Assembly (NCBI RefSeq): GCF_022809315.2 | Contig: NZ_JAKZJU020000001.1 | Coordinates: 1-64,000 of the forward strand | Source: Mesosutterella faecium | GTDB taxonomy: Bacteria > Pseudomonadota > Gammaproteobacteria > Burkholderiales > Burkholderiaceae_F | Direction of reading: 5' to 3' | Length of the DNA stretch: 64,000 nucleotides | Shown here: piece by piece, positions 4,943 to 25,986 of the stretch | Position numbering within the stretch: position 1 is the first letter of the stretch | How the letters are laid out: the number at the start of each line of letters is the position of its first letter | Program-made: the position numbers and the translations under genes | Notes under the pieces: model-generated | Seen by the model: only the letters and a program-made list of their open reading frames with translations | Told to the model about the DNA's origin: nothing | Databases searched by the model: none

Positions 4943-4952
4943 GGAGTGTTAA

Positions 4953-7189: not shown

Positions 7190-8406
7190 TGGCTACTTTT
7201 GAAGAAAAGCTGTGGCCGGCGTCTTTCCGGGGCGTGCCGTTCAACGCAACGGCGAGCACGCTCACGATTGGCCGCCGGACGCATGTGTTTGAATACCCGC
7301 AGCGCGACAAGCCCTTTGTCGAAGACTTGGGCAAAAGCGCTCGCGAAATCACTCTGACAGCGGTTTTCGCGGGCCCCGAGTACATCACTGGCATGAACCG
7401 CCTGCTTGAGGCGATGGAGCAGGAGGGCTCCGGCGTCCTCGTCCACCCAATGCTTGGCAGCATGACGGTGACGCCCAAAGCAACGACCAAGGTCACTTAT
7501 TCGACGACCAAGCTCGGGTTTTCGTCCGCCGATCTCGTTTTCGTCGAATCCGGGGACTATGTTTTCCCGACTTCCTCGAATGATACGGCGGCGGTAAGCG
7601 CCTCGGCCTCAGAAACCCTGAAGCAGAGCGCACTGGACGCATTTCTCGACAAGTTTGATCTTTCCGGCGCCCAGGACTTCGTGAAGGCGGCGGTTACGGG
7701 AAATCTTTCGAAGTTCTTCGAGCTCAGCGACTACAAGGAGCTCTGCCGGCTGTTTTCCGTGTCCGACGAGATGTCTGAGCTGTCGGCCAAGGCAATTTCC
7801 CTTGTGAGCAGCGATGTCGAGGTGTTTGCGAAGACCGTCGTCGACTCCTTCGGGTATTCGAGGCTGGCTTACAGCGTCAACAACTGGAGGCGTGTGACGA
7901 GGCTTTTGAGCCGCCTGGTGAGATCGGACGGCATGAACAACGATTACCAGACGGGGCAGGTTTCCGATGAAGAAGCGAGAACGACGGCTCAGTCTTCAAC
8001 CCTCCAGTCTCTTGCTCGTCAGACGCTGCTTGCTGAGGCCGTTTCGGCGTCGGCTAAGGTTGGCGGTGATGAAGATACGGCAGAAGGCGGCATAGCCTAC
8101 GAGGACATGATCGCGGTGCGCGACCAGGTTCTTGCGGCGCTCGACGCTGAGATGCTGGAGACCGAGAGCGACGATGTTTATCTGGCGCTGGAAGACGCCC
8201 GATCGGCGGTGTCTGATGACATGACGACTCGGGCTCAGGACTCGGCTCGTTTAATATCTGTTACACCTCCGGACGTACAGCCGGCCCTGGTGGTTGCCTA
8301 TAATTTTTATGAGGATGCCGATCGGGAGAAAGAGATCATCGACCGCAACGGCATTCGGCACGGCGGGTTCGTCCCCGCCAGGGAGTTGAAGCTTCTGAGC
8401 CGGTGA
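7189..8406 (+). CDS. Mu gpN-like tail/DNA circularization protein
   Basis: The start is the ATG at 7189 overlapping the tape measure TGA. The first about 100 residues match the 'DNA circularization N-terminal' domain ('W.ASFRGVPF......GRR...HEYP.RD.P..EDLG'), found in Mu gp43/gpN. The rest is helical. In Mu-like tails the protein belongs to the baseplate/tail tip. The gene ends just before a low-GC inserted gene, so the usual direct junction with the hub gene is interrupted. Confidence 0.85.
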   Translation: MATFEEKLWPASFRGVPFNATASTLTIGRRTHVFEYPQRDKPFVEDLGKSAREITLTAVFAGPEYITGMNRLLEAMEQEGSGVLVHPMLGSMTVTPKATTKVTYSTTKLGFSSADLVFVESGDYVFPTSSNDTAAVSASASETLKQSALDAFLDKFDLSGAQDFVKAAVTGNLSKFFELSDYKELCRLFSVSDEMSELSAKAISLVSSDVEVFAKTVVDSFGYSRLAYSVNNWRRVTRLLSRLVRSDGMNNDYQTGQVSDEEARTTAQSSTLQSLARQTLLAEAVSASAKVGGDEDTAEGGIAYEDMIAVRDQVLAALDAEMLETESDDVYLALEDARSAVSDDMTTRAQDSARLISVTPPDVQPALVVAYNFYEDADREKEIIDRNGIRHGGFVPARELKLLSR

Positions 8407-8411
8407 CCGCC

Positions 8412-8780
8412 ATGAAAAAGATCCTTGCTGTTGTTGCTGCTGTGCTTGGTGTTTGCTTAAGCGTCAACGCATTTGCGTATCATCGTGTTGCAAAAGAATG
8501 GGTTGATGCAGAAGGAGTAAAGCATCAGGAACTTATCTTGGTTCCAGATCCTCCAGGAACAAAGTATGCCCCTTATAAATTGACGCGCGAGCAGGAGCTT
8601 AAAGCGGATTATGAGCGGAAATTAAAAGAAATACAGGAAGAGCAACGCTGGCGCGATGAACACAATAAGTTCGTAGAAAACGGAACAATAGGAAAATACA
8701 CCAATTACTATAACCCTGTAACGAAGCAGAGTATTTTGGTAGATCCCAAAACCGGTACTATCAAAATAGATAAGCCTTAA
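8412..8780 (+). CDS. Secreted small protein, likely prophage moron, function unknown
   Basis: The ATG at 8412 gives 122 residues starting with a clear signal peptide (MKK, hydrophobic core, then 'VNAFA' before YHR as cleavage site). The mature part has a 'WVDAEGVKH' segment vaguely like DUF4124 proteins and a charged helix, so it should act in the periplasm or outside. It is AT-rich compared with the gpN gene before it, it sits between two genes that are usually adjacent, and a terminator follows immediately: the hallmarks of a moron. I cannot give a function; host surface change or superinfection exclusion are only possibilities. Confidence 0.65.
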   Translation: MKKILAVVAAVLGVCLSVNAFAYHRVAKEWVDAEGVKHQELILVPDPPGTKYAPYKLTREQELKADYERKLKEIQEEQRWRDEHNKFVENGTIGKYTNYYNPVTKQSILVDPKTGTIKIDKP

Positions 8781-8799
8781 TGGGATTGGTTTAAATAGG

Positions 8800-8832
8800 A
8801 GCACCTCAAGAAATTGGGGTGCTTTTTTTTTT
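8800..8832 (+). terminator. Intrinsic terminator after the moron
   Basis: A 10-bp stem (8800-8809 with 8814-8823, one T-G pair) closed by a GAAA tetraloop and followed by ten T. It ends directly at the ATG of the hub gene (8833), so hub translation needs readthrough or a promoter not visible here. Confidence 0.8.
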
Positions 8833-9954
8833 ATGGCACCAGAAAACGAAGTCACACTATATATAAACGGTCGTAAATATATTGGCTGGCGGTCTGTTCA
8901 AATTGATGTCAGTGTGAATTCTTTAGTTCGCGTATGCGAACTTGGTGCGGCACGAACTTCCAATAGAACGAGTCTTTGCGATGGCATAGAAGAAGGCGCT
9001 GATGCTGTTGTTAAAATAGGTTCTGATACTGTTTTGACAGGATATGTCGTTAGCAAAAAAGTTAGCTATTCTGAAAACAGCACACAGATCCAAATAACGA
9101 TTAAAAGTAAAACCGTTGATTTGGAAGAATGCATGATTCCGCCAAAAAAACCAAATCAATGGAAAAATGCGCGGATTTCTTCAGTAATAAAAACGGTGGC
9201 TGGGTATTACGGAATAGAAACAATTGATAATGGCTTAGCTAAAAACGCTCGGAATATTGATTTTTCTACCCACGAAACTATAGGCAAGGGGATCGTAAAC
9301 CTGCTTAAAGCTGACAGCCTTCTTATAAATGATGATGAATTTGGTGATTTAGTTATATGCGATATTGGTCAAAATGGTGACGCTCATGACCAACTTATAT
9401 ATGGTAAAAATATTTTGAGTGGGTCAAGGGACCACGATATATCAAAGGTTTTCAAAACATATGTTGTTATTGGGCAAGGCACAGATCCGGAAAGTAAAAG
9501 CAAAAATCCGGCAAATTCTTTGTCTGAGCCTTCGGAAAATGCAGAGTTTCCTAGAAATAGGGTCTTGGTTACTGAACAATCAGGAAATAGAACAAGAAAA
9601 GAGCTTAAAACTAGAGCAGATAATTTAAAGTTCAATTCTGTAGGAAATGCGGATGTTTTAACCTATCAAGTGCAGGGTTGGCGGCAAAGCAACGGGGATT
9701 TGTGGAAACAAAACATGAATGTCGTAGTAAAAGACCCAATGCTTGACATTAGCCAAACGCTCTTTGTTTCAAAAATTAGCTATAAGCTTGATCAAGACGG
9801 ATCTACGACAACGATGGTGCTGAAATCCCATTGGGCGTTTGCGGTGACGGATCTACCAGATGCCGAAAAAGGCAAAACGACCAAAAAAACTAAAACGAAG
9901 CAGGCCAAGAAAGGAACGACATTCCTTGCCAAAGCGGGGTCCGGCAAACTATGA
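8833..9954 (+). CDS. Baseplate hub protein (Mu gp44/gpP-like)
   Basis: A 373-residue protein with the gp44 N-terminal pattern 'VTLYINGRKYIGWRSVQI' and the closing 'DPMLDISQTLFVSKISYKLDQ.G..T.M.L' of the hub/late-control fold. It forms the trimeric hub that holds the spike. The ATG follows a T-run with no good ribosome site close by; the G-run of the terminator stem (8816-8819) is the only candidate. Base composition is odd: in 9001-9060 I count 20 G/C of 60, and this AT-rich character changes to the phage's usual GC near 9,820, inside the gene. The C-terminal Lys-rich tail (residues about 345-365) is unusual. Confidence 0.82.
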   Translation: MAPENEVTLYINGRKYIGWRSVQIDVSVNSLVRVCELGAARTSNRTSLCDGIEEGADAVVKIGSDTVLTGYVVSKKVSYSENSTQIQITIKSKTVDLEECMIPPKKPNQWKNARISSVIKTVAGYYGIETIDNGLAKNARNIDFSTHETIGKGIVNLLKADSLLINDDEFGDLVICDIGQNGDAHDQLIYGKNILSGSRDHDISKVFKTYVVIGQGTDPESKSKNPANSLSEPSENAEFPRNRVLVTEQSGNRTRKELKTRADNLKFNSVGNADVLTYQVQGWRQSNGDLWKQNMNVVVKDPMLDISQTLFVSKISYKLDQDGSTTTMVLKSHWAFAVTDLPDAEKGKTTKKTKTKQAKKGTTFLAKAGSGKL

Positions 9955-10484
9955 GCAACGGTCTGATTGATCTGGTCACGAGAGGAGTGCTGCTGGCCAA
10001 GAACGCCGCCCGGAAGATGCGGACGGTGCAGGTGCAGCTCTTTGCCGATGACCTGCGGGACGATGTCGAGCATTTCGAACCGTACGGCTTCACATCCGAG
10101 GCTAAAACGGGGGCTGAAGTGCTTGCGGCCTCCCTGGCAGGCGACAGAGAGCACACGATCGCTTTCTGCATCACCGACCGGCGCTACCGCCCAACGGGAC
10201 TCAAGGATGGCGAGGTCTGCGTTTTTGACGATCTGGGGCGAAAGGTCTACTTCTCTCGATCCGGGATCGTGGTCGAAGGCAAGGATTCGCCAGTGACAGT
10301 AAAGAGCTCTGGATCTGTGACGATTGACGCGCCCGAGACCACCATCACGGGAAAGCTGATCGTGAATGGGGACATTCAGGGCAAGGCCCAGATTTACGAC
10401 TCGAAGGGCCGGATGCAGAGTATCAGGGACACCTACAACGGACATACGCATAACGGCGGCGTTAGCCCGGATCAAAAGATGTGA
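9951..10484 (+). CDS. Baseplate spike/assembly protein V (Mu gp45-like)
   Basis: A 177-residue protein with the gp45 layout: an OB-fold-like N-terminus, then a beta-helical C-terminus ('VTVKSSGSVTIDAPETTITG...NGDIQGKAQIYD') that ends in the iron-binding tip motif 'YNGHTHNGG' (HxH). It is the membrane-piercing spike of the contractile tail. It overlaps the hub gene by 4 bases (ATGA), and GC content is back to the phage's normal level. Confidence 0.9.
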   Translation: MSNGLIDLVTRGVLLAKNAARKMRTVQVQLFADDLRDDVEHFEPYGFTSEAKTGAEVLAASLAGDREHTIAFCITDRRYRPTGLKDGEVCVFDDLGRKVYFSRSGIVVEGKDSPVTVKSSGSVTIDAPETTITGKLIVNGDIQGKAQIYDSKGRMQSIRDTYNGHTHNGGVSPDQKM

Positions 10485-10491
10485 GGTGAAG

Positions 10492-10644
10492 ATGATTGAT
10501 TACGACAAACTGGCAGAAGATGAAGCGCAAAGACTTTTTATGAAGATTTTTGCCAAAGGCTTTGTGGCTGGTGGCGTGACGGTATTCATCTTTGTTGTTC
10601 TGCTTGTAGGCGTGATTTTTTGCGTTTCTTATTTCATGCGGTAA
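10492..10644 (+). CDS. Small single-pass membrane protein, unknown
   Basis: A 50-residue protein with a charged N-terminal half and one clear membrane helix ('VAGGVTVFIFVVLLVGVIF') near the C-terminus. GAGGTGAAG precedes the ATG, a good ribosome site. It lies between the spike gene and a terminator. Such proteins are not part of the Mu tail set; a holin-like or exclusion role is possible but not shown. Confidence 0.6.
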   Translation: MIDYDKLAEDEAQRLFMKIFAKGFVAGGVTVFIFVVLLVGVIFCVSYFMR

Positions 10645-10677
10645 ATCTGCGCTCTTTACCGCCGAGGAAAAGTAAAA

Positions 10678-10709
10678 CCCAGTCAGACGGGCATCTGGCT
10701 GGGCTTTTT
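10678..10709 (+). terminator. Intrinsic terminator after the spike block
   Basis: A 10-bp stem (10678-10687 with 10694-10703, one G-T pair), a six-base loop and a run of five T. The loop-proximal core CAGACGG-CATCTG recurs in the terminator at 13566. Confidence 0.85.
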
Positions 10710-10725
10710 CGTGGAGCTTGATCAA

Positions 10726-11142
10726 ATGATTCTGATGCTCAACGGCGTTGAGTCGACTTTGTCCGATTTTTGTGACGATGAGTTAAGACGGGCTGTGTAC
10801 AACAGCCTTTTTTCATGGGCGCGGGCTTCGGATTCAGACGAGCTCCCTGGGGACTCGAAGCAGGGCTGGTGGGGTGATACCTACGCGGATGACACCGGCG
10901 ATCAGTTCGGGTCGAAGCTTTGGCTGCTGGCCCGCTCGAAGGTGACTCAGGAGACGCTGCTTAAAGCGCAGGAATACGCCGCGGCGGCGCTGCAGTGGAT
11001 GATCGATGACGGCATTGCCAAAAGCGTAGACGTTTCCGCAGAACGGGGAGGTGCCGACCAGCTGAATCTCACGGTCACGATTCAGAGGCCGAGCGATGCA
11101 GACCTTATCGGCATGAGGTTTCAAGACATTTGGAGCGAATGA
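10726..11142 (+). CDS. Baseplate protein gp46-like
   Basis: I choose the ATG at 10726, with GGAG about 10 bases upstream; a GTG at 10711 is the longer option. The 138-residue product has the GP46 family features: 'SLFSWARA...DE...D..QGWWGD' and 'GSKLWLLARSKVT'. In Mu this protein is a baseplate wedge component. It overlaps the next gene (ATGA at 11139). Confidence 0.85.
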   Translation: MILMLNGVESTLSDFCDDELRRAVYNSLFSWARASDSDELPGDSKQGWWGDTYADDTGDQFGSKLWLLARSKVTQETLLKAQEYAAAALQWMIDDGIAKSVDVSAERGGADQLNLTVTIQRPSDADLIGMRFQDIWSE

Positions 11143-12179
11143 TGGCATTTGTTAGACCAACACTGCGGGAGCTGATTTCCCGCATCAGCTCGGGAATCCA
11201 GTCGCGCCTGAGCGTTCCGCAGGTGCGCAGAAGCAATGCGACTGTTTACAGCCGGGTGCTGGCAGGGGCGAGCCATGAGCTGCACGGCTTCATTGAGTAC
11301 GTCTCCAAGCAGATTTTCGTCGACACGGCAGACTCCGAGCATCTCGACCGCCATGCTTCAATCTTCGGGATCACAAGGAAGGCCGCTTCGAAAGCCTCTG
11401 GAACAGTGAAATTCAGCTTTCAGGACGGCGTTGTGAACGTGCCTGTAGGGACCATTCTGCAGGGCGGAGACGAGCAGCAGTTCCAGGTGACTGTCGCTCC
11501 GGATTCGAGCGGCGTTGCGTCTGTTGAAGCTCTGGTGGCCGGCGAGGCGGGGAACATCGAATCGGGCGACACTCTCACGCTGATCTCTCCGATCGAAGGC
11601 GTGATGTCCGAGGCTGAGTCTCAGGGAATAGCGGGCGGAGCTGATGCAGAGGACGACGAAAGCCTGCGGGCCCGCGTGCTCGCAAGGCAGAGAGAAACGC
11701 CGCACGGCGGAACCTCATCCGACTATGTCCAGTGGGCGCTGGCCGTCCCGGGGGTGACTCGAGCCTGGTGCTATCCGCTTGAAAACGGGGACGGGACCGT
11801 TGTCGTGAGGTTTGTCTGCGACGATCTGGCTGACATTTCACCGACCACCGAAATGGTGAAGCAGGTCCAGGCCTACATCGACGAGAAGCGCCCGGTGACC
11901 GCCGATGTGACAGTCATGGGCCCGACGCTTAAGGCGGTCGACATCGAAATCAGCACGCTCACGCCGGACACGTCTGACGTCAGGGCGGCGGTCGAGGCCG
12001 AGCTTAAGGACCTCTTCATGAAGGAAAGCGAGCCCTCGAGAAGCATTTATCTGTCGCACATAAGAGCGGCCATCTCCGCAGCCGCGGGCGAAGTCGACCA
12101 CACTCTTGTTTCCCCGACTTCCAATCCGACGGCGGGGACTAATGAGCTGCTCACCCTGGGGACGATCACATGGAACTGA
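11139..12179 (+). CDS. Baseplate J-like protein (Mu gp47)
   Basis: A 346-residue protein of the baseplate J/gp47 family: N-terminal 'RPTLRELISRI..G', the 'E.LDRHASIFGI.R..A..A.G' segment, and 'ESLRARVLARQRETPHGG', all diagnostic. It forms baseplate wedges that trigger sheath contraction. The ATG at 11139 overlaps the gp46 stop; the adjacent ATG at 11142 is an equal alternative. It overlaps the next gene by 10 bases. Confidence 0.92.
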   Translation: MMAFVRPTLRELISRISSGIQSRLSVPQVRRSNATVYSRVLAGASHELHGFIEYVSKQIFVDTADSEHLDRHASIFGITRKAASKASGTVKFSFQDGVVNVPVGTILQGGDEQQFQVTVAPDSSGVASVEALVAGEAGNIESGDTLTLISPIEGVMSEAESQGIAGGADAEDDESLRARVLARQRETPHGGTSSDYVQWALAVPGVTRAWCYPLENGDGTVVVRFVCDDLADISPTTEMVKQVQAYIDEKRPVTADVTVMGPTLKAVDIEISTLTPDTSDVRAAVEAELKDLFMKESEPSRSIYLSHIRAAISAAAGEVDHTLVSPTSNPTAGTNELLTLGTITWN

Positions 12180-12793
12180 CGACGCAGGAAGAGTACTCCC
12201 GGATGCTGAAGCAGTTGCTTCCTCCTGGTCCAGCCTGGCCGAGGGGCGACGCCACATCCCTCATGGGCATGATGATCGAGGTTTGGGCCGAGGAGTTCAG
12301 CCGCGTTGATTCCCGAGTGCGGACGCTGATGCGAGAAGCCGACCCTCGCTTCGCGGTGGAGACGTTTGAGAACTGGCTGGACGACTGGGGATTGCCTGAC
12401 GACTGCATTCGAGCCTGGTCCAGTGCCAATCAGACGACGCTGCGCACACTGCTCATGTACAAGATCAAGAACATCGGCAGGCAGGATCGGTCCTACTTTG
12501 TCGAGCTTGCAGAGATGTTCGGATACCGAATCGTCATCGATGAGTTCCGCCAGCACTCCGTGCAGTCAACCTCAATGGACGCTGTCTGCGGGGAGAACTG
12601 GCGGCACATCTGGCGGGTCGACGTAATGACAGGGGCCGGGTCGGTTATGGGGTACCACAACATGCTGGGGCCGGTGAACGAGGCGCTCGCCTGGTGGGGC
12701 GACCGACTTATTGAGTGCCTGATCAAGCGGTACAAGCCAGCTCATACCGACTTGTATTTCGGCTACTACAGCTTTGAAGGAGACAACGCGTAA
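12170..12793 (+). CDS. Baseplate protein gp48 / DUF2313 (YmfQ-like)
   Basis: A 207-residue protein starting 'MELTTQEEYSRMLKQLLPPG' and 'PAWPRGD', the DUF2313 signature of Mu gp48 and YmfQ. It connects baseplate wedges to tail fibres. Coupled by overlap to gp47 on one side and to the collar fibre gene on the other (shared base at 12793). Confidence 0.88.
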   Translation: MELTTQEEYSRMLKQLLPPGPAWPRGDATSLMGMMIEVWAEEFSRVDSRVRTLMREADPRFAVETFENWLDDWGLPDDCIRAWSSANQTTLRTLLMYKIKNIGRQDRSYFVELAEMFGYRIVIDEFRQHSVQSTSMDAVCGENWRHIWRVDVMTGAGSVMGYHNMLGPVNEALAWWGDRLIECLIKRYKPAHTDLYFGYYSFEGDNA

Positions 12794-13545
12794 TGGACAG
12801 GATCTTTCTTTCCGGCGCCGTGCAGAACGAGCCCAACATTCCCGATGACGTCGACCCAGGGTATCCGACAGACGGTTCGTCCGGCGGCGGCATAGCGTCA
12901 ACCGTTCCCGGGGCCATCTGGTACAACGCGGTCATGATGGAGCTGATCAACGCGATCAAAGGCGGTGGCGTTACCCCCGACAGGCATGACAATGCCCAGC
13001 TCGACGCGGCCATCAAGGCCCAGATCAAGACCGTGAATCAGGCTCTGTCAGACGCAGTGGCCCAGATTCAGGCCAAGGTGGCTCAGGTGGAAATCGTACC
13101 GGCAGGAGCCATTATGTTCTTTCCGACTTCTTCTTCTCCGAACGCGAACTGGCTGATTTGCAACGGCCAGGCGGTGAGCCGCTCGGCCTATGCGGGCCTG
13201 TTCTCCGCGATTGGGACCAAATATGGCTCGGGCAACGGGAGCACGACATTCAATTTGCCGTATCTGATCGACAAGACGGTGTGGGGCGGGCAGAGCAACG
13301 TTGGCGAGCAGAGAAGCGCCGGCCTTCCGAACATTACCGGCACCTTCCTGAACTGGACTCGTGGGAACGCCTCGGCAGACGGTTCTTTCTACGCGTCAGA
13401 TGTCACAAGCCGTGGTCTGAAGGGCGGATCCGGCGGTGATGAGGGGCGGTATCACTTCGACGCCTCTCGCTCCAACGGGATTTATGGACGGTCAGGCACA
13501 GTGCAGCCTCCGGCTCTTGTTTTGCTCCCGTGCATTCATATTTAA
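12793..13545 (+). CDS. Tail fibre protein with phage tail collar domain
   Basis: A 250-residue protein. The N-terminal about 90 residues include a 'VPGAIWYNAVMMELINAIKGGG' segment common in fibre proteins; residues about 100-170 carry the tail collar domain ('VPAGAIMFFPTSSSPNANWLICNGQAVSR..YAGLFSAIGTKYGSGNGSTTFNLP'). The C-terminus ends 'QPPALVLLPCIHI', the usual closing strand. It is short for a receptor-binding fibre, so it may be the baseplate-proximal fibre, with the next fibre genes completing the appendage. Confidence 0.85.
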   Translation: MDRIFLSGAVQNEPNIPDDVDPGYPTDGSSGGGIASTVPGAIWYNAVMMELINAIKGGGVTPDRHDNAQLDAAIKAQIKTVNQALSDAVAQIQAKVAQVEIVPAGAIMFFPTSSSPNANWLICNGQAVSRSAYAGLFSAIGTKYGSGNGSTTFNLPYLIDKTVWGGQSNVGEQRSAGLPNITGTFLNWTRGNASADGSFYASDVTSRGLKGGSGGDEGRYHFDASRSNGIYGRSGTVQPPALVLLPCIHI

Positions 13546-13565
13546 GCTTTTAGTAGAAAGACAAG

Positions 13566-13598
13566 CCCCGCCCAGACGGCCATCTGAGCGGGGTTTTT
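13566..13598 (+). terminator. Intrinsic terminator after the collar fibre gene
   Basis: Stem of CCCCGC/GCGGGG plus CAGA/TCTG with one internal mismatch, a six-base loop and five T. It ends the baseplate block and separates it from the fibre/cysteine-array block. Confidence 0.85.
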
Positions 13599-13622
13599 GT
13601 TATCGAGAAGAAACGGTTCCCG

Positions 13623-13796
13623 ATGAATGAAATTATACCCGTGCTGGCGGCACTTCTGCCGCTGAGAGAGGCCATGATGAAGCCAGACAAGGAACTTCCT
13701 GCTTATCTGCGAGTGTTGCGTTGGGGAGTGACGATCTTTGTTCTCGCTTACGGGATCCTGCTTATTGCCGAGAAGATGAAAAGCATTTTCTTTTAG
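13623..13796 (+). CDS. Small membrane protein, unknown
   Basis: A 57-residue protein with a hydrophilic middle and one C-terminal membrane helix ('GVTIFVLAYGILLIAEKM'). It lies between the terminator and the long fibre gene. No family recognised. With the 50-residue protein at 10492 it shows that this phage places small membrane proteins next to its terminators. Confidence 0.55.
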   Translation: MNEIIPVLAALLPLREAMMKPDKELPAYLRVLRWGVTIFVLAYGILLIAEKMKSIFF

Positions 13797-13804
13797 AGGT
13801 AAAG

Positions 13805-14644
13805 ATGAAGAGACTTTATTACTCAGACGCGTCTGACACGCCGCCTTCTCCGCCCAAGAATCCGATCACAACTCAATATCCGCAGGATGGAAACAGAGCG
13901 AAAAAGCAAATGCCGACAGTGATCGGGGCCTACTGGTATCACATGATCACCGAGGAATTCATGGCGGTGATCGAGCAGGCCGGGCTGGAGCCGTCGCTTA
14001 CAAACCTGCATCAGCTGGCGGATGTCTTTGCTGACTTCAAGACGCGGGCCGCAGGGGCCGAGGCTTACAAAACAGCGGCTGAAGCGGCCGCGACCCGGGC
14101 TGAAACGGCCGCTAACGGCGTTGTCACCGAAACTGCTTCAAAGATTAAGGAAATTGACGCCGAGGGCGACAAGCAGGTTAAGGCTGTTCAGGACGCAGGA
14201 TCAACCGTTTCTTCGGATATCGAGGCAGGTAAAACCGCCCTGCAGACCAAGCTCACAGAGCTGATTGCAAAGCTGGATACAGAGGGAGGAACCGAGGCCG
14301 CTTACGTGAAGCAGCAGGCGCAGGACATCCTCGATCAGATCACAACCTCTGAATCTAATGCCAAAACATACGCTGAGAATGCTGCGGCCAGCGCGTCCTC
14401 TGCTGCAACCACGGTTTCGGATGGAAAACAGGCGATAACAGATCTTCAAGCGGCTGCAACAGCGGCAGTACAGGCGCAGCAGACCACTTCTGTTAAAGCT
14501 GTGAGCGATGCTCAGAGCACCGCGCAAACCGCTGTTGCATCCGCTCAGTCCGCAGCTGTTTCTGCTGTCAAAGCTCAGGAAACGGCCAGCCTCCATACGA
14601 TTGAAACAGAAATGGAAACAATTGATCTTGGAGGGCTGTCATGA
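13805..14644 (+). CDS. Long coiled-coil tail fibre protein
   Basis: I start at the ATG at 13805 (AGAGGTAAAG upstream), since an upstream GTG at 13721 would overlap the preceding small gene. The 279-residue protein begins with a fibre-attachment-like segment ('MPTVIGAYWYHMITEEFMAV', similar to the collar fibre N-terminus) followed by about 200 residues of Ala/Thr/Gln/Lys-rich heptad coiled coil ('EAAATRAETAANGV', 'SAQSAAVSAVKAQET'). It would make a trimeric shaft. It overlaps the first cysteine-array gene by 4 bases (ATGA), so the array proteins are probably its distal partners. Confidence 0.75.
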   Translation: MKRLYYSDASDTPPSPPKNPITTQYPQDGNRAKKQMPTVIGAYWYHMITEEFMAVIEQAGLEPSLTNLHQLADVFADFKTRAAGAEAYKTAAEAAATRAETAANGVVTETASKIKEIDAEGDKQVKAVQDAGSTVSSDIEAGKTALQTKLTELIAKLDTEGGTEAAYVKQQAQDILDQITTSESNAKTYAENAAASASSAATTVSDGKQAITDLQAAATAAVQAQQTTSVKAVSDAQSTAQTAVASAQSAAVSAVKAQETASLHTIETEMETIDLGGLS

Positions 14645-15003
14645 AATCCAAGTATCTGCAGCTTCGCGGAGGGACGACGGATCAGAATGACGCTTTCACA
14701 GGAAAAAATCGGGAGCTTACGGTCGACACGGACGAGAAGCGCCTTCGGGTTCATGACGGCACAACGGCCGGCGGCCATCCCGTAGCGAAAGCGTCCGAGA
14801 TTCCAACAAAGACAAGCGAGCTTGAGAACGATGCCTTCGAGACAAAGGCCATTCTCAGCAAGCTATCACAACTGACGGATGACGTGGGGTACTGGAAGAA
14901 GGCGAAGCTCACGAAGCTCTCTCAATTGGAGAATGACACGGGGTTCGTTGCCGGTCACTGCACCTACTGCACCTACTGTTCGTACTGCACAAACTGCACA
15001 TGA
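14641..15003 (+). CDS. Mtd-like appendage protein 1 with short C-terminal cysteine array
   Basis: A 120-residue protein. Residues about 5-50 match the N-terminal domain seen in phage major tropism determinants ('LRGGTTDQNDAFTGKNRELT', then 'VHDGTTAGGHP'). The middle contains 'KLSQLTDDVGYWKKAKLTKL', a repeat found in phage fibres. The last 16 residues hold five cysteines at exact three-residue spacing (CTYCTYCSYCTNC). First of three tandem paralogs of growing size; its start overlaps the fibre stop. The array is the shortest and may be a truncated or minimal version. Chemistry of the cysteines is not known (see findings). Confidence 0.8.
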   Translation: MKSKYLQLRGGTTDQNDAFTGKNRELTVDTDEKRLRVHDGTTAGGHPVAKASEIPTKTSELENDAFETKAILSKLSQLTDDVGYWKKAKLTKLSQLENDTGFVAGHCTYCTYCSYCTNCT

Positions 15004-15011
15004 GGTTTTAG

Positions 15012-15527
15012 ATGTCTTTAAAGGAAATCTTGTGGAAGGGCGGAACTGCGGCCAAGAATGATGCCTACACCGGAGAGCCTGGTGAAATCACCATCGATAC
15101 GGACAATCACCGCATCAGGGTGCATGACGGAGCGACCGCCGGAGGAACGGCTCTGGCCCTCAAGTCCGACCTGCCGACAAAGCTGTCCCAGCTGACTGAC
15201 GATGTTGGAATGTGGGCAAAGGGCGCCCTGACAGCCCTGTCTCAGCTGACCGATGACGTTGGCTATTGGAAAAAGTCAGGTCTGACGAAAATCTCTCAGC
15301 TCACGAACGACAGCGGCTTTCAAACCGGGCACTGTTCGTATTGCTCTTACTGCTCGTACTGTTCACAGTGCAATAACTGCCTCAATTGCAACACGGTTCA
15401 ATGTACGACCGTGAACTGCACAACCGTAAATTGCACAACCGTTAAGTGTTCTGTTTATACAGACTGCAGTTACTGCAGCAACTGTGATTGCAACTGTGAT
15501 TGCAACTGCAATTGTTGTGACGCATAA
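15012..15527 (+). CDS. Mtd-like appendage protein 2 with 20-cysteine C-terminal array
   Basis: A 171-residue paralog of the preceding protein: same Mtd-like N-terminal domain ('NDAYTGEPGEITIDTDNHRI', 'RVHDGATAGGTAL'), then two 'LSQLTDDVG.W.K..LT' repeats. From about residue 107 the sequence becomes a cysteine array: seven cysteines every three residues (C-S-Y-C), four in a five-residue TTVNC-type repeat, then again every three, and finally every second residue (CDCNCDCNCNCC). I count 20 cysteines in about 65 residues. No signal peptide; it is cytoplasmic until assembled. Likely substrate of the radical SAM proteins 1.4 kb downstream (inference). Confidence 0.82.
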   Translation: MSLKEILWKGGTAAKNDAYTGEPGEITIDTDNHRIRVHDGATAGGTALALKSDLPTKLSQLTDDVGMWAKGALTALSQLTDDVGYWKKSGLTKISQLTNDSGFQTGHCSYCSYCSYCSQCNNCLNCNTVQCTTVNCTTVNCTTVKCSVYTDCSYCSNCDCNCDCNCNCCDA

Positions 15528-15536
15528 GGGGCTGTT

Positions 15537-16028
15537 ATGGTTAAGAAAATTCTTTTAAAGAGAGGAACGATCACAGCCACATCCGTCTACACGGGCAAAT
15601 CCCGCGAAGTCACCGTCGACACAGACAAAAAAATCCTTGTTGTGCATGACGGAGTAACGGCGGGCGGAACAAGTCTTGCCAGGCTTTCAGAGTTGCCTAC
15701 AAAACTATCTCAGCTGACAGAGGACAGCGGAATCTGGACAAAAAATGCTCTTACTCTTGCGAGCCTTACAGACGATGTTGGGTACTGGAAAAAGTCTGAT
15801 CTAACAAAAGTCTCACAGCTCACTAACGACAACAAATACAAGACCGCGCACTGCTCCTATTGCAGCCATTGCACGTACTGCTCTAACTGCGGGCGCTGCA
15901 ACAACGTTCACTGCAGCCAGGTTCAATGCGGTCAGGTTCAATGCAATCAGGTGCAGTGTTCGCAATGTTCAGGGCAATGCACAAACTGTAGCAATTGTAG
16001 TGGCAGCAGTGACTGCTGCGACAACTAG
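15537..16028 (+). CDS. Mtd-like appendage protein 3 with 16-cysteine C-terminal array
   Basis: A 163-residue third paralog ('SVYTGKSREVTVDTDKKILV', 'VHDGVTAGGTSL'), again with two 'LSQLTEDSG.W.K' type repeats. The C-terminal array has 16 cysteines: six at three-residue spacing (CSYCSHCTYCSNCGRC), then a five-residue repeat (VHCSQ VQCGQ VQCNQ VQC), then a mix ending SDCCDN. Spacing order (3, then 5, then irregular) mirrors protein 2, although the residues between cysteines differ, which points to selection on spacing rather than on exact sequence. Confidence 0.82.
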   Translation: MVKKILLKRGTITATSVYTGKSREVTVDTDKKILVVHDGVTAGGTSLARLSELPTKLSQLTEDSGIWTKNALTLASLTDDVGYWKKSDLTKVSQLTNDNKYKTAHCSYCSHCTYCSNCGRCNNVHCSQVQCGQVQCNQVQCSQCSGQCTNCSNCSGSSDCCDN

Positions 16029-16037
16029 GGGGGATTT

Positions 16038-16928
16038 ATGAAAAAAATAGCAGCGTGCGCCCTTGAAGACCACAATCATTTTGTCAATATTTTCGTTACT
16101 GACGAGGCCATGAGTGTTGCGCTATTTTCGCCGTATAGCGGGGACCAGGACGCGATCTCTTCTGACCAGTGCGGAACCTTTTTGAATCAGCACAACACAT
16201 CCCCCTTCATGCTCAATAACGGAATCGTTGTGGCGGGAGCAGACCTCAAGGAAGGTCTGGCAGGTAAATTCATCTGCATTGGAAAAACTACGTATTTTTC
16301 CAGCCCTGTTGCCGCAAAAAATGCTTCTGTAGAGTGTTATGGGAGCGGGGAAATCACGGATCGTCGCTCCATGGCGTGGTTTGTAAAAAATGGATGGCTT
16401 TCTGCCCCGACCACTCGTAACCCGATGAGCTACTTCACGAAAGCAGGGACGATGCGCACTTTGCAGCTTGAACGCATGCAGCTTGCGGTACAGCTCATTA
16501 TGCCGTTTGCCTCTGAGTCGGTGACGAGCGACTACAACAGCATTCAGTTCAACTACTCTCCCACATACGGGTATCGTTGCAACCTTCCTGTTGAAGAATT
16601 CACGCTTGAACAGCTCCAGAATCACGGGAACGGATGGTCTCCGAACCCGGTTTTGGCTCTTTCTGGTCCTGAATCGACCGAGGAAGACAAAGATGCGGAA
16701 TTCTCTGTCTCCATGTCATGGGAAGACGGAACAGCAATTGAACACGATTCTGAAATTTATATTGATTCCACCGGTGGATACGTTCCTCTGCGCAGGCTTG
16801 AACTGAGCAATGGAGTGGGTAAATTCCGCATCCGGGCTCTGGGTCTCAAGGCAGGCGAGTCGTTCAAGGTGAAGGTGGGATGGCGGTATTTCACTGGTGC
16901 GGCTGAAAAGACGGTGCTCGTTGTATGA
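16038..16928 (+). CDS. Unrecognised protein of the cysteine-array cassette
   Basis: A 296-residue protein I do not recognise. No signal peptide or membrane helix. The first about 200 residues are mixed alpha/beta with scattered single cysteines; the last about 90 ('VLALSGPESTEEDKDAEFSV' onward) look like an immunoglobulin-like beta-sandwich ('GVGKFRIRALGLKAGESFKVKV'). GGGGGGATTT precedes the ATG. It lies between the arrays and the first radical SAM gene and overlaps the latter (ATGA), so it is coupled to the modification genes. It may be another virion appendage protein, a scaffold that presents the arrays, or a chaperone. Confidence 0.6.
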   Translation: MKKIAACALEDHNHFVNIFVTDEAMSVALFSPYSGDQDAISSDQCGTFLNQHNTSPFMLNNGIVVAGADLKEGLAGKFICIGKTTYFSSPVAAKNASVECYGSGEITDRRSMAWFVKNGWLSAPTTRNPMSYFTKAGTMRTLQLERMQLAVQLIMPFASESVTSDYNSIQFNYSPTYGYRCNLPVEEFTLEQLQNHGNGWSPNPVLALSGPESTEEDKDAEFSVSMSWEDGTAIEHDSEIYIDSTGGYVPLRRLELSNGVGKFRIRALGLKAGESFKVKVGWRYFTGAAEKTVLVV

Positions 16929-17866
16929 TCCGGCGCCTGAATATCGTACTGGGTGCGGCATGCAATAGGCATTGCTCCTACTGTTGCCAGGCGGCTCCCG
17001 CAGACAGGTTGTCGTGCGGCAAAACAGACTGGTCGGATCTCAGAGAAAAGCTTCGCTTTTATAACGAGCGTGGCGCCTTCAGAAAGCTTGAGCGCATCAG
17101 TTTCTGGGGTGGAGAACCCATGCTTTATTGGGGCGTTGTTAAGGCGCTCTACCAGGTTCTGTGTGACGACGGCGTTTATCCAGAATCCATTTACCGTGTT
17201 GCTACAAACGGGGATCTTATAAACGAAGATTATGTGCAGTTCGCCAACAGCACCCCAGGGTGGCTGACAACGGTGAGTTGGCACGACGGTTCTATATCAG
17301 AGAGCCAGTGGTCAGTTCTGAGACGTCTTGCTAACTGCTTTATAACGGGTCTGGTCACTAGCCGGTGGAGAGATGAAATTCCTGCCATGAGAGATAAATA
17401 TGAATCTCTTGGCCTGAGCCTGCCGGTACAGCTATGGCCAGTCCACCTTGTGGGCCAGTGCTCTGAGGATGACAAGCTCACCGCTAAAAGCGTTGATGAT
17501 GCCCTTGAATACATTCGAATCCTTGTCGCCAACCCTCAGGACCGTTTTTCTGCGTTTCTTCGAAAAAGCATCATTGTCCATGCATCCAGGCGCGGGCGAG
17601 AGAGGCCTGATTGTGGGGACGAGTCGGTTCTAACAGTTGATTTACATGGCCGTGAATACCTATGTCAACACAATCCGGTGCCTGAGACATTGAGTTCTCA
17701 TCGTCTAATGTCCGGAGCTGAAAACGTCAGAACTGGATGCCGCGAATGTGTTGCTTGGGACCATTGCGGAGGCGGATGTTTTCTTACTTCAAATCGAAAA
17801 GCAGAGTGCCGATTCTACCGGGGGTACGTTCGGCTAGGGAGATCTTTGAATGAAACTGCGTCTTAA
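16925..17866 (+). CDS. Radical SAM protein 1 of the cysteine-array cassette
   Basis: A 313-residue protein with the radical SAM iron-sulfur motif very close to the N-terminus (C13, C17, C20: 'GAACNRHCSYCC'), the SAM-binding 'ISFWGGEP' segment, and a C-terminal cysteine-rich region ('TGCRECVAWDHCGGGC...ECRFY') that resembles a SPASM/twitch extension binding extra clusters. Such enzymes install thioether, C-C or other crosslinks in ribosomal peptides. No precursor-recognition domain is apparent. It overlaps both neighbours (4 and 17 bases). A substrate in the upstream arrays is inferred from context only. Confidence 0.85.
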   Translation: MIRRLNIVLGAACNRHCSYCCQAAPADRLSCGKTDWSDLREKLRFYNERGAFRKLERISFWGGEPMLYWGVVKALYQVLCDDGVYPESIYRVATNGDLINEDYVQFANSTPGWLTTVSWHDGSISESQWSVLRRLANCFITGLVTSRWRDEIPAMRDKYESLGLSLPVQLWPVHLVGQCSEDDKLTAKSVDDALEYIRILVANPQDRFSAFLRKSIIVHASRRGRERPDCGDESVLTVDLHGREYLCQHNPVPETLSSHRLMSGAENVRTGCRECVAWDHCGGGCFLTSNRKAECRFYRGYVRLGRSLNETAS

Positions 17867-19088
17867 TGTTAGGGAGCGAGATGGATCGCGCCACGGGTGG
17901 GAATACGACAACGTGACGAACGAGCTGTGGCGAGAGGGCGAACTTCTTGATCTGTCGAAAGATGGGCGCTTATCACAGTATATGAGCGGCCAGACTCATA
18001 GAGGACAGGTTTTCTCCGACAGCAAGAGCAAGGATCTCTACGATCTGAGAATACAGTTAGGTCTCCGCTGCAACATGCATTGCCGTTATTGCGCGCAGTC
18101 GGATCGAGCTTTAGAGAAGGTGTGCTGGGGGCCCAAGGACGTACCCGCGTTCATCGCAAAACTCAAGGCCGGCAACGTCAATGTGACTGGCGTCATCGAA
18201 CTCTGGGGTGGAGAGCCTTTTGTTTATTGGAAGACTATTAAAAATCTTGTCCCTCAGTTGCGCGAAATGTATCCCAACGTCCGGTTTGCCATGATCACAA
18301 ATGGGACGCTTCTAACTGAAGACAAGATTTCATTCTGCGAGAAATATCGTATTGATCTTACATTTAGCCATGATGGACAGGGCTATCAGCTCCGCGGTGC
18401 GGATCCCCTGGACGATCCAAAAATGGTTGATCTGTGGAGGCTTGCGTTCTCAAAACTTCGCTGCAACATCAATTGCGTTCTATCCCCGGCAAATACAGAT
18501 ATAGAGCAGATCATTGAACACATTCATTCCCGACTCGGGGCTGTGCCTATCAACTTCGAAGGCATCATGACCCATGTAGGAGTGACAGATAAAGAATTGA
18601 TGTTCTCAGACAAGCAGTTGCTCACGCTCCAAAAAAACATTTTTACAGCAATGACATCCGGACCGTGGGCTAAATTTCCGGCGCTGGAGCAGCAGTGCCG
18701 CAGCCTTATCCAGATGCTAGTGAATCGAAAGAGACTGAACCCGAGAGCAGTTAAGTGCTGCATGCATTCTCCTGATAATGCTGCAGTTAATCTCAACGGG
18801 GATGTACTTTCTTGCCACGATCATTGCACACCGGACAAGTTTGTCGGGAGGATAGAGGACCTGGAGGGCGTGGATATCTCTCGCTGTTTTAAACCATGGA
18901 GCGAGAGGCCGGAGTGCCGCAGATGCCTTGTGCTGTCCATGTGCCGCGGCGCATGCCCGCAGATCGAAGGGCTGGCGCGCACGCTCACCTGTAAGAATGA
19001 GTTCGCGTACAAGTTCGCAATCTTCCAGTCTGTGTTCTGGCTGCTGTTTGGCCTGACGCTCGAATCGTATGCGCCGGCGGAGGGCTGA
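17850..19088 (+). CDS. Radical SAM/SPASM protein 2 of the cysteine-array cassette
   Basis: A 412-residue protein. Residues 1-65 are an extra beta-rich N-terminal extension ('DGSRHGWEYDNVTNELWREG'), possibly for substrate binding. The radical SAM motif is C74, C78, C81 ('LRCNMHCRYCAQ'), followed by 'ELWGGEPFVYW'. The C-terminus has a SPASM-like set of cysteines ('VKCCMHSP', 'DVLSCHDHC', 'ECRRCLVLSMCRGACPQ'). It resembles anaerobic sulfatase-maturase-type enzymes in layout. It is not a simple duplicate of protein 1: size, extension and spacing differ, so two different reactions or two-step processing are possible. A terminator follows within 40 bases. Confidence 0.87.
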   Translation: MKLRLNVRERDGSRHGWEYDNVTNELWREGELLDLSKDGRLSQYMSGQTHRGQVFSDSKSKDLYDLRIQLGLRCNMHCRYCAQSDRALEKVCWGPKDVPAFIAKLKAGNVNVTGVIELWGGEPFVYWKTIKNLVPQLREMYPNVRFAMITNGTLLTEDKISFCEKYRIDLTFSHDGQGYQLRGADPLDDPKMVDLWRLAFSKLRCNINCVLSPANTDIEQIIEHIHSRLGAVPINFEGIMTHVGVTDKELMFSDKQLLTLQKNIFTAMTSGPWAKFPALEQQCRSLIQMLVNRKRLNPRAVKCCMHSPDNAAVNLNGDVLSCHDHCTPDKFVGRIEDLEGVDISRCFKPWSERPECRRCLVLSMCRGACPQIEGLARTLTCKNEFAYKFAIFQSVFWLLFGLTLESYAPAEG

Positions 19089-19126
19089 CCATGTGCACGA
19101 CTCAGTCAAGATTTTTAGACAAGACG

Positions 19127-19150
19127 GCCGCCCGAATAGGCGGCTTTTTT
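19127..19150 (+). terminator. Intrinsic terminator after the radical SAM genes
   Basis: Perfect GCCGCC/GGCGGC stem with a six-base loop, followed by six T. It closes the cysteine-array cassette and separates it from the lysis genes. Confidence 0.85.
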
Positions 19151-19183
19151 AATTCCCCGAATCTAGCTAAGGGGGCTTTACCG

Positions 19184-19351
19184 ATGGGAGTTGCTGGAAT
19201 GGATTTTGCAGGACTGACGCTTGGCGAGCTGGTTCAGCTGCTGACTCTGATCTATACAGCGCTTCTCATCCTCGGGGCGATCCCGAAAGCGATAGCGGGC
19301 ATCCAGGCGCTGAAGGATCGGTTTAGATCCAAGGGGAAGGAAGAAGAATAA
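19184..19351 (+). CDS. Small membrane protein, holin candidate
   Basis: The ATG at 19184 gives 55 residues with one long hydrophobic stretch ('LVQLLTLIYTALLILGAIP') and a basic C-terminal tail, a plausible small holin. An in-frame ATG at 19091 would read through the terminator at 19127, so I reject it. It starts the lysis block (membrane proteins, lysozyme, spanins). Holin function is inferred from position. Confidence 0.55.
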   Translation: MGVAGMDFAGLTLGELVQLLTLIYTALLILGAIPKAIAGIQALKDRFRSKGKEEE

Positions 19352-19420
19352 AAGCAAACCCGGCGGGAGCTGGAACTCCGGCCGGGCACTAAATACACGA
19401 CATAGATGGGTGGCATCTAT

Positions 19421-19615
19421 ATGGAAGATGATACCAAAGAAAGATTAGACAGGCTAGAGGCTTTTATGGATGAGCAAAGGTTGGAAAAAGTTCAGCAAGC
19501 CGCCATTGATAACTACAAAAAAGAGCGTTTCCATTATTGGAAAGAGAGAGTCTTAGTCGCTTGCGCTCTTATCGGAGGTGTTCTCGGCGTAATCGGGTTC
19601 GTCCGATCACTGTGA
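19421..19615 (+). CDS. Small coiled-coil membrane protein, XhlA-like (lysis)
   Basis: A 64-residue protein starting at the ATG at 19421: a charged helical N-terminal half ('ERLDRLEAFMDEQRLEKVQQ') and a C-terminal membrane helix ('VLVACALIGGVLGVIGFV'). This layout matches XhlA/haemolysin-like phage lysis proteins. It directly precedes the lysozyme gene. It could be a holin or an anti-holin; two small membrane proteins in a lysis block often form such a pair. Confidence 0.55.
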   Translation: MEDDTKERLDRLEAFMDEQRLEKVQQAAIDNYKKERFHYWKERVLVACALIGGVLGVIGFVRSL

Positions 19616-19635
19616 GGACTCAGGGAGCTTTTCTC

Positions 19636-20097
19636 ATGAATCGCTATCAAATAGCAGCCATGACCGTATCAGCCGCCACGTTGGTAGGGATCGCCGGGTA
19701 CGAAGGCTACTCCTCGGTGGCTTATGTTCCGGTAAAGGGCGATGCCCCGACTATCGGATGGGGTACGACAACGGGAGTGAAGAAAGGCGACACTATCGAG
19801 CCGACGCAGGCGCTCCAGAGACTGTACCGGGATACCGAGACGGCGAAGGCCGGAATAAGTAACTGCATCAAAGTCCCGATAAGCCAAGGGGAACTAGATG
19901 CGTATCTGTCGCTTTCTTACAACATCGGGGCCGGGGCGTTTTGCAAGTCGACGCTTGTGAAGAGGCTGAACCGCGGCGATTACGCCGGAGCGTGCTCGGA
20001 GATTAAGCGCTGGTGCTACTTCAAGGGAAAAAAGTTACCCGGTTTAGTCGAGAGAAGAGAGAAGGAATACCGGACGTGCTTGAGGGGGCAGCCATGA
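19636..20097 (+). CDS. Endolysin, lysozyme family (GH24), signal-anchor type
   Basis: The ATG at 19636 gives 153 residues. The N-terminus is a weakly hydrophobic Ala/Gly-rich segment ('IAAMTVSAATLVGIAGYEGY') that looks like a signal-anchor-release sequence, so the enzyme may be exported by Sec without a holin. The catalytic Glu is E23 (GYEGY), followed by 'AYVPVKGDAPTIGWGTT', the GH24 active-site string, and 'SLSYNIGAGAFCKSTLVKRL'. It cuts peptidoglycan glycan strands. It overlaps the spanin gene start by 4 bases. Confidence 0.9.
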   Translation: MNRYQIAAMTVSAATLVGIAGYEGYSSVAYVPVKGDAPTIGWGTTTGVKKGDTIEPTQALQRLYRDTETAKAGISNCIKVPISQGELDAYLSLSYNIGAGAFCKSTLVKRLNRGDYAGACSEIKRWCYFKGKKLPGLVERREKEYRTCLRGQP

Positions 20098-25137: not shown

Positions 25138-25986
25138 TCAGGCTTTTTCGCCGGAATGGCCGCAGCAGCCTTTCTCGTCATGGTGGTGTCCGCCGCAGCA
25201 GCACCCGCCCTCTTCGCCCTCGCCGTGGTGATGGTGGCCGCAGCCGCACTCCCCGTCCTCGTCGTGGTGGTGCCCGCCGCAGCAGCACTCGCCCTCGTCG
25301 CCGTCGTGGTGATGATGGTGGCCGCAGCCGCACTCCCCGTCCTCGTCGTGATGGTGCCCGCCACAGCAGCACTCACCCTCGTCGCCGTCGTGGTGGTGAT
25401 GGTGGCCGCAGCCGCACTCCCCGTCCTCGTCGTGATGGTGTCCGCCGCAGCAGCATTCGTCCTCATCGCCGTCGTGGTGGTGATGGTGGCCGCAGCCGCA
25501 CTCCTCGTCCTCGTCGTGGTGGTGCCCGCAGCAGCAGCCGTCATGGTGATGATGGCCGCAGCAGGGGATGACCGGCGTGAAGGGCTCGGTCACCTCGGCG
25601 CAGGCCAGCCCGATCTGCTTGAGGGCGGCGCCGAGCGCCTCATCGGCCGCGACTCCGAAGCCGTCCTCGGTCTGCATCACGCGAAAGCCTCTCATCATGA
25701 GGGCGGCCGCGGCCTGCTCGAGCATCGTGGGGTCGCCCGTCACGTGATAAACCGCTTCCGGTGCCGCGTCGACCGCGTACATCGCGCCTTTTTCGTCCAT
25801 GAAGATGTCGCCCACTTCGAGCACGCGCATGTCCGGGGCCTTCACTTCGTAGGATTCGCCTGCGGCTTCGAACGCCGCGGGAAGATCGAGGCGCTGCGAG
25901 AACGTGAGCGGGATCTTTTTCATGCGGGCGAGAAGCACGGGGGCGGGCGCAGAGCCCGGCGGGAGGAGACGGTTCAGAGTAATCAT
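25138..25986 (-). CDS. UreE-like protein with very His/Cys-rich repeat tail
   Basis: A 282-residue protein. Residues 1-140 follow the UreE layout: an N-terminal beta domain ('KKIPLTFSQRLDLPAAFEAA', 'VLEVGDIFMDEKGAM') and a ferredoxin-like second domain ending 'EVTEPFTPVIP'. The usual UreE 'YHLGNRH' segment is replaced by 'VYHVTGDPTML'. Residues 141-282 are tandem 28-residue units (start at 151, 178, 206, 234, 262) of the type CCCGGHHHDEDGECGCGHHHHH; I count 39 His and 27 Cys. It should bind many nickel, zinc or copper ions and may serve as metal store or delivery chaperone. No urease or hydrogenase gene is in the window. Confidence 0.75.
   Translation of the reverse strand: MITLNRLLPPGSAPAPVLLARMKKIPLTFSQRLDLPAAFEAAGESYEVKAPDMRVLEVGDIFMDEKGAMYAVDAAPEAVYHVTGDPTMLEQAAAALMMRGFRVMQTEDGFGVAADEALGAALKQIGLACAEVTEPFTPVIPCCGHHHHDGCCCGHHHDEDEECGCGHHHHHDGDEDECCCGGHHHDEDGECGCGHHHHHDGDEGECCCGGHHHDEDGECGCGHHHHHDGDEGECCCGGHHHDEDGECGCGHHHHGEGEEGGCCCGGHHHDEKGCCGHSGEKA
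25156..25566 (-). repeat. 84-bp tandem repeats encoding the His/Cys tail
   Basis: Five units (the first and last divergent or partial) encode the 28-residue His/Cys/Asp/Glu unit. They produce several long overlapping frames on both strands, which are not genes. Copy number may vary between strains. Confidence 0.85.

What the first reader, a model, noticed from the sequence alone, without database searches (positions are those of the whole stretch)
14641..19088. Prophage cassette: three cysteine-array appendage proteins with two radical SAM enzymes
Three tandem Mtd-like virion proteins (14641, 15012, 15537) end in 5, 20 and 16 regularly spaced cysteines, and six genes in one direction (three arrays, one unknown, two radical SAM) end at a terminator. 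Radical SAM/SPASM enzymes with cysteine-rich peptides are the hallmark of thioether-type RiPP systems (sactipeptides, ranthipeptides), but those are secreted small peptides, whereas here the substrate would be the tip of a phage tail fibre. I know no characterised phage appendage hardened or activated by radical SAM crosslinks. Alternatives: three-residue aromatic crosslinks (SYC repeats), metal binding, or epimerisation.
Basis: partly seen in the sequence, partly recalled or inferred. Interest (0 to 1): 0.95.

Follow-up and report, generated by a model that had tools for sequence, protein, structure and literature searches.

The report
Phage tail-tip cysteine-array modification cassette
Several unrelated groups of bacterial viruses carry the same kind of gene set, tail-fibre-like proteins that end in evenly spaced cysteines beside radical SAM enzymes of the kind that chemically stitch peptides, which suggests that they build a chemically modified tail tip by a route not yet described.

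Summary
The link is not local. Of 120 viral loci fetched only for the DNA spelling of CNCNCNC, 45 of the 67 that encode it in frame also encode a radical SAM enzyme, all on the same strand; 0 of 53 out-of-frame controls do. Conversely, 97 of 103 enzyme-anchored loci with M and at least 4 kb upstream have a cysteine-array gene within 5 kb upstream; without M, 11 of 26 do. Named phages with the pairing: Achromobacter JWF and 2-1, Campylobacter CP220, Salmonella SPN3US, Erwinia Asesino. Most arrays sit at the protein's C-terminus. The main enzyme is predicted to fold like CteB, a thioether-forming maturase, but about equally like ChlB and anSME. Most likely these enzymes modify tail-fibre tips, probably by thioether cross-links. 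Chemistry and function are inferred. Nine searches of the open library found no paper describing it.

The parts
14641..15003 (+). Array protein 1 (120 aa): Mtd_N domain, shaft-like repeats, C-terminal 5-Cys array (spacing 3)
   Evidence: PF18454 42.7 bits; Cys count and spacing; all 5 Cys columns invariant in 29 aligned sequences, window included
15012..15527 (+). Array protein 2 (171 aa): Mtd_N domain, 20-Cys C-terminal array (spacings mainly 3 and 5, then 2)
   Evidence: 127 homologues at E<=0.001, 120 listed, of which 104 have 4 or more Cys and 16 share only the N-terminal part
15537..16028 (+). Array protein 3 (163 aa): Mtd_N domain, 16-Cys C-terminal array
   Evidence: its array region also matches phrog_31552, unknown function
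16038..16928 (+). M protein (296 aa): conserved cassette partner; residues 201-296 predicted Ig-like, residues 1-200 without an assigned fold
   Evidence: 166 ORFs in 159 held sources (window included) by iterated HMM; model pLDDT 90.5; Ig-like matches; seven uncharacterised phage relatives in BFVD with E below 1e-10
16925..17866 (+). Accessory radical SAM/SPASM enzyme (313 aa), present in a minority of related cassettes
   Evidence: PF04055; CX3CX2C at 13 and SPASM motif 230-285; 27 homologues
17850..19088 (+). Main radical SAM/SPASM enzyme (412 aa), phrog_1802 group, putative array maturase
   Evidence: phrog_1802 E 4.8e-40; best NCBIfam profile PapB ranthipeptide maturase E 1.6e-20, below its equivalog cut-off; 167 homologues, 120 listed; predicted fold closest to CteB, ChlB and anSME
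19126..19145 (+). Terminator-like hairpin closing the cassette

Best explanation
The six genes are a tail-fibre-tip modification cassette. The three array proteins are virion proteins held by their N-terminal Mtd_N domain and ending in a cysteine array at the distal tip. Before assembly, in the host cytoplasm, the two radical SAM/SPASM enzymes modify the array, most likely by joining cysteine sulphurs to carbon atoms of nearby residues (thioether links, within a chain or between the chains of a trimer). The result would be a rigid, protease- and redox-resistant tip for contact with, or entry into, the host envelope. M is a dedicated partner with an Ig-like domain, either part of the tip or a factor presenting the array to the enzyme. 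Shown: gene content, order, strand, conservation, position of the arrays, enzyme class by sequence and predicted fold. Inferred: that the array is the substrate (about 0.85), that the product is a thioether (about 0.6), and the tip role (about 0.45).
Confidence: 0.6

Rival explanations
1. The arrays are substrates of the radical SAM enzymes, but the product is not a thioether: for example Cys oxidised to formylglycine (a row of aldehydes), epimerised residues, or a carbon-carbon bond.
Against: After the GX4C cysteine none of the 26 aligned sequences has Asp (they have H, Q, N or T); CteB has CHQF, anSME CDFY (that the anSME Asp is catalytic is recalled). Aromatic residues are rare between cysteines in the enzyme-anchored set (Y 5%, F 3%). 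Asn makes up 42% there, so a special role of Asn is not excluded.
Confidence: 0.2
2. The arrays are metal or iron-sulphur binding needles, analogous to the iron-binding HxH motifs of T4 gp37, and the radical SAM genes act elsewhere or assemble the metal site.
For: Alternating CxC repeats resemble HxH spacing. T4 gp37 HxH iron binding is described in PMC11705849 (passages read).
Against: It does not by itself explain why array genes and SPASM-type enzymes keep company; spacings 3, 4 and 5 do not alternate.
Confidence: 0.1
3. Chance or hitch-hiking: radical SAM genes are auxiliary metabolic genes in a variable tail region that also collects Cys-rich proteins.
For: Earlier papers read phage radical SAM genes this way: metabolic benefit in CP220 (PMC2853527, passages); cassettes in the host recognition cluster of pelagimyophages (PMC7029224, passages).
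Against: 0 of 53 out-of-frame controls against 45 of 67 in frame, same strand 45 of 45; KVP40, with three radical-SAM-like genes in the 20 kb read, has no array there (one phage only); the enzyme-M-array order recurs.
Confidence: 0.05

Closest known systems
SCIFF/ranthipeptide maturases (CteB 5wgg, PapB NF047865, TIGR03974)
   Same: Radical SAM plus seven-Cys SPASM in the window's enzymes; Cys-dense substrate gene beside the enzyme; His after the GX4C cysteine as in CteB; closest predicted fold
   Different: Substrate candidate is the C-terminal tip of a phage tail protein with an Mtd_N, collagen or other tail-fibre body, not a small leader peptide; scores far below equivalog cut-offs; partner gene M; no exporter or protease among the six genes
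Anaerobic sulfatase-maturating enzyme (anSME 4k36-4k39, TIGR03942)
   Same: Predicted fold and SPASM; acts on a Cys of a protein (recalled)
   Different: No Asp after the GX4C cysteine in 26 aligned sequences; score 48 against a cut-off of 349.45; no sulfatase among the six genes
T4 gp37 tail-fibre tip with HxH iron sites
   Same: Repeated side chains at the distal end of a phage fibre (PMC11705849, passages)
   Different: Cys instead of His; radical SAM enzymes encoded alongside
Hint and S74 C-terminal processing domains of tail fibres
   Same: Occur directly C-terminal of some arrays, so that the mature protein would end in the array
   Different: They cleave or chaperone (recalled); most arrays here have neither
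PHROG families 1802 (radical SAM), 6085 and 26958 (array proteins of SPN3US and CP220), 31552
   Same: Members of this system are already clustered there
   Different: Listed as unknown function or 'radical SAM domain-containing'; those listings show no pairing
Thermus phage radical SAM module with DUF483 (Cumys, phiMa; PMC11437467, passages)
   Same: A phage gene module around a radical SAM gene with unknown partners
   Different: Partners named there are a DUF483 protein and another unknown; the passages read mention no cysteine array (the genome was not compared)

Membership tests
Radical SAM/SPASM peptide-modifying enzymes | CX3CX2C cluster motif | tested here: met
   window 412 aa: C74, C78, C81; 313 aa: from C13. 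Not found in SPN3US gp102 as annotated
Radical SAM/SPASM peptide-modifying enzymes | SPASM cysteine pattern C-x(9-15)-G-x4-C ... C-x2-C-x5-C-x3-C ... C (pattern recalled) | tested here: met
   412 aa: 303-369 plus C381, all invariant in 26 aligned sequences; 313 aa: 230-285. Also in JWF gp030 and L248_a; not found by this pattern in SPN3US gp103, CP220 gp136 or the L014 enzymes
Radical SAM/SPASM peptide-modifying enzymes | Fold of solved members | tested here: met
Ranthipeptide/SCIFF systems | Equivalog score of PapB (340) or SCIFF maturase (425) | tested here: not met
   73.6 and 52.6 bits for the 412-aa enzyme
Ranthipeptide/SCIFF systems | Small precursor peptide with a leader | tested here: not met
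   Substrate candidates are 120-171 aa Mtd_N proteins with C-terminal arrays
Ranthipeptide/SCIFF systems | Thioether bonds in the product | not testable with these tools
   needs mass spectrometry
anSME | Equivalog score (349.45) and Asp after the GX4C cysteine (catalytic role recalled) | tested here: not met
   48 bits; His at that place in the window, no Asp in 26 aligned sequences
Mtd_N tail proteins | PF18454 above cut-off | tested here: met
   42.7, 33.6, 32.9 against 26.3 bits
RiPP recognition element (RRE) in the enzyme | N-terminal winged-helix-like RRE (recalled) | tested here: inconclusive
   Residues 1-45 are modelled as three strands and a helix; the VIA alignment to CteB spans residues 1-400 but does not resolve it
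HxH metal needle fibres (T4 gp37) | Paired His motifs binding iron | tested here: not met
   The arrays consist of Cys repeats; metal content is not testable here

The most novel reading that the evidence does not exclude
Many tailed phages of unrelated groups make a thioether-laddered tail-fibre tip: a radical SAM enzyme, often an M partner and sometimes 2OG-Fe oxygenase-like proteins turn a plain cysteine repeat into a covalently cross-linked rod, possibly stapling the chains of the fibre trimer together. It would be a RiPP-type chemistry used to build a virus particle.
Probability: 0.45. Interest if true: 0.96.

Novelty: new variant of a known kind. Interest (0 to 1): 0.9.

Why it matters
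Radical SAM genes in phages have been read as metabolic helpers (for example PMC2853527, passages). Here a large group of them is tied to one structural target, the end of a tail-fibre-like protein. That gives unknown genes in cultured phages (SPN3US, Erwinia giant phages, CP220, JWF) a testable role, names a new partner family (M), exposes array genes missed by annotation, and offers repeat substrates for peptide cross-linking chemistry. It would also mean that virion parts can carry RiPP-type modifications that standard proteomics could miss.

Tried and rejected
Metabolic (QueE/MoaA-like) reading: KVP40 was the one control; three radical-SAM-like genes and no array in the 20 kb read. It remains the published reading for CP220.

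M as universal partner: rejected. SPN3US gp101 and JWF gp029 hold the same place but do not match the M profile; tblastn of the window M found nothing in 50,697 phage records at E 1e-3. Known fold for M: the lists are filled by the C-terminal Ig-like domain; residues 1-200 were not modelled alone, so nothing is claimed about a new fold.

Strict array threshold (6 Cys in 24 aa): 76 of 157 enzyme-anchored loci on the enzyme's strand and 43 of 157 on the other strand. Some of these on either strand read as spurious ORFs, and short arrays such as FNCNCNCRC were missed, so another detector was used and its false rate is told. Rows dropped: 28 of 157 loci with under 4 kb upstream. Six M-bearing loci failed the detector (L195, L208, L254, L261, L289, L295), L254 and L289 show arrays before Hint-like sequence and L261 one further upstream.

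The first array test used 80 of 120 loci (33 of 45 against 0 of 35; Fisher); repeated on all 120. One search stopped on a script error after L062 and was finished. The M profile was built partly from these loci, the enzyme profile was not. Some contigs occur in both the array-anchored and the enzyme-anchored sets, and some loci are near-copies; dereplicated counts are given for that reason.

The tblastn count of SPN3US-type array genes rests on the N-terminal 57 residues only, because no listed match covers the array itself; arrays were read only in SPN3US and Asesino.

No promoter evidence (1 site, shuffles mean 4.7).
Full report
What is there. The six ORFs are as described. The first three share an N-terminal Mtd_N domain (PF18454; also phrog_9648, tail protein) and repeats of the type LSQLTNDxGYW, and end in 5, 20 and 16 cysteines. 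Next comes a 296-aa protein with no Pfam, NCBIfam or PHROG match, then two radical SAM proteins of 313 and 412 aa. Genes abut or overlap, and a hairpin with a T run follows. Upstream are tail-collar and tail-fibre genes, downstream a holin-like gene. The host is probably a relative of Mesosutterella porci (96% and 95% identity over enzyme residues 53-412; inference).

The arrays are the conserved partner. In 67 loci the spelling lies in frame in an ORF of 40 aa or more; in 53 it does not, which gives an internal control. A radical SAM ORF is found in 45 of 67 and 0 of 53; all 45 are on the array's strand; dereplicated, 32 of 47; 59 of the 67 arrays lie within 40 residues of the C-terminus. Test 2 started from the enzyme (157 new loci, L144-L300, some on contigs of test 1). 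Of 129 with at least 4 kb upstream, 103 carry M, and 97 of those have an array gene within 5 kb upstream on the same strand; of 26 without M, 11 do. Dereplicated, M-bearing loci give 58 of 64 upstream on the same strand against 12 of 64 upstream on the opposite strand and 9 of 48 downstream on the same strand. The detector is permissive, so the controls are not zero.

Named phages. Achromobacter phages JWF and 2-1: array CNCDCNCNCSC (JWF) or CNCDCNCSC (2-1) directly before a Hint-type sequence (Hint by Pfam for JWF; 2-1 not tested), with the enzyme two genes on. Campylobacter CP220: gp140 carries repeats of CNYCTCD, 2.2 kb from radical SAM gp136; here the array is 199 residues from the C-terminus. 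The 2010 genome paper noted the 21-bp repeat and the radical SAM abundance separately; 'cysteine' does not occur in its main text (passages only). Salmonella SPN3US: two array ORFs (20 and 21 Cys), one overlapping a gene annotated in another frame and one with no annotated feature, then a 295-aa protein and two adjacent genes annotated as radical SAM. Erwinia Asesino repeats this. A tblastn search with the second SPN3US array protein matches 69 phage records, in the listed rows over at most the N-terminal 57 residues; its main enzyme is found at 80% coverage or more in 63 records; 39 of the 40 listed array records are among the 60 listed enzyme records. Two viral contigs (L013, L014) hold radical SAM ORFs and an array; in both, and in L248, L259 and L263, the array is followed by S74-like sequence (S74 confirmed by Pfam for L248 only). 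The enzymes of these groups resemble each other only weakly (26% over 96 residues between the window and SPN3US gp103), the SPASM pattern as I wrote it is not found in the SPN3US, CP220 and L014 enzymes, and the arrays differ in period (2, 3, 4, 5, 7). What is shared is the cysteine.

Where the arrays sit. 95 of 108 arrays in M-bearing loci end within 0-4 residues of the C-terminus; of the ten that end 20 or more residues short, eight run into what reads as a Hint start. Of eleven array carriers from other loci given to Pfam or PHROGs (eight in each, five in both), four match tail-fibre, collagen or S74 families (L045, L084, L165, L248), one Hint plus Shufflon_N (JWF), one Hint weakly and below cut-off (L220), two only unknown-function PHROGs (one SPN3US ORF, CP220), and three nothing (the other SPN3US ORF, L152, L011, each in one library only). 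In the window family 1244 of 1272 cysteines lie in the C-terminal 40%; 16 of the 120 listed homologues have fewer than 4 cysteines. Cysteine columns are conserved while the residues between them drift. This fits selection on a cysteine ladder at the distal end.

How it probably works. Fibre protein is made, the enzyme modifies the C-terminal array in the reducing cytoplasm, the fibre trimerises (in some phages with Hint or S74 processing), and the modified tip is built into the virion. All of this is inference. The only residue common to all arrays seen is Cys, so the chemistry should be on cysteine. Residues between cysteines in the enzyme-anchored set are mainly Asn (42%), then A, S, D, G, T, with few aromatics (Y 5%, F 3%), so cyclophane-type links are unlikely as the general product, although Tyr is conserved within the window's SYC units. 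Thioethers are the best guess from the enzyme's nearest relatives. Formylglycine, epimers and metal sites remain possible.

Against. Nothing chemical is shown. Some arrays lack the enzyme in the DNA held (22 of 67) and some enzymes lack arrays (15 of 26 without M). M is absent from SPN3US and JWF at the matching position. KVP40 is a single negative control. Own-genome copies are not independent evidence: contig C3 (40,950 bases) repeats window 1-19702 at 100%.

Novelty. Nine searches of the open library for phage radical SAM with tail, cysteine, thioether or RiPP terms gave no paper describing this link (titles and starts of abstracts as listed, showing 15 of 207 and 15 of 16; passages read in seven papers). 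Closest in print among those: radical SAM cassettes in the host recognition cluster of pelagimyophages (PMC7029224, passages) and a radical SAM/DUF483 module of Thermus phages (PMC11437467, passages). Most subscription papers, and preprints, are not covered. I rate it a new variant of a known kind, because the enzyme class is known; as a phage system I know no counterpart.

Noticed in passing
G000 contig C3, 21249-40950 (L302, L303): A second contig of 40,950 bases repeats window 1-19702 at 100% identity up to its end, so this phage region occurs twice in the assembly.
   Followed up: partly
L152:6199-6942 and 7204-7851; L295:7250-7975: Several Rhodobacterales-type cassettes also hold genes between M and the enzyme that resemble 2OG-Fe(II) oxygenases (L152 247 aa: PF13759 22.7 bits and TIGR02466 28.4 bits, both below cut-off; the 215-aa gene has no match), a possible second modification.
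   Followed up: partly
L220, L223, L229, L254, L270, L286, L289, L293, L006; L248, L259, L263: Arrays are followed directly by sequence that reads as Hint or S74, so cleavage would leave the array as the mature C-terminus (Pfam tested only for L006, L220 and L248).
   Followed up: partly
L142:15414-15818 and 15829-16221 (SPN3US): Array ORFs missed by annotation: one overlaps gp100, annotated in another frame, and one has no annotated feature; PHROG 6085 is listed as unknown function.
   Followed up: yes
L147:2580-9230; L148: Runs of five and four neighbouring or overlapping radical SAM ORFs in Sutterellaceae relatives, with no cysteine array found.
   Followed up: no
L143:16207-16578 (CP220 gp032): A 123-aa protein with 27 cysteines in NCxxC-type repeats, about 7 kb from radical SAM gp023.
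   Followed up: no
L150, L152, L190: One Thalassobacter stenotrophicus genome carries at least three copies of the enzyme with M.
   Followed up: no
window 25138-25986 (-) and 48629-48949 (-): Two further ORFs with 11 and 9 cysteines in 50 residues, no Pfam or PHROG match; probably not genes.
   Followed up: partly
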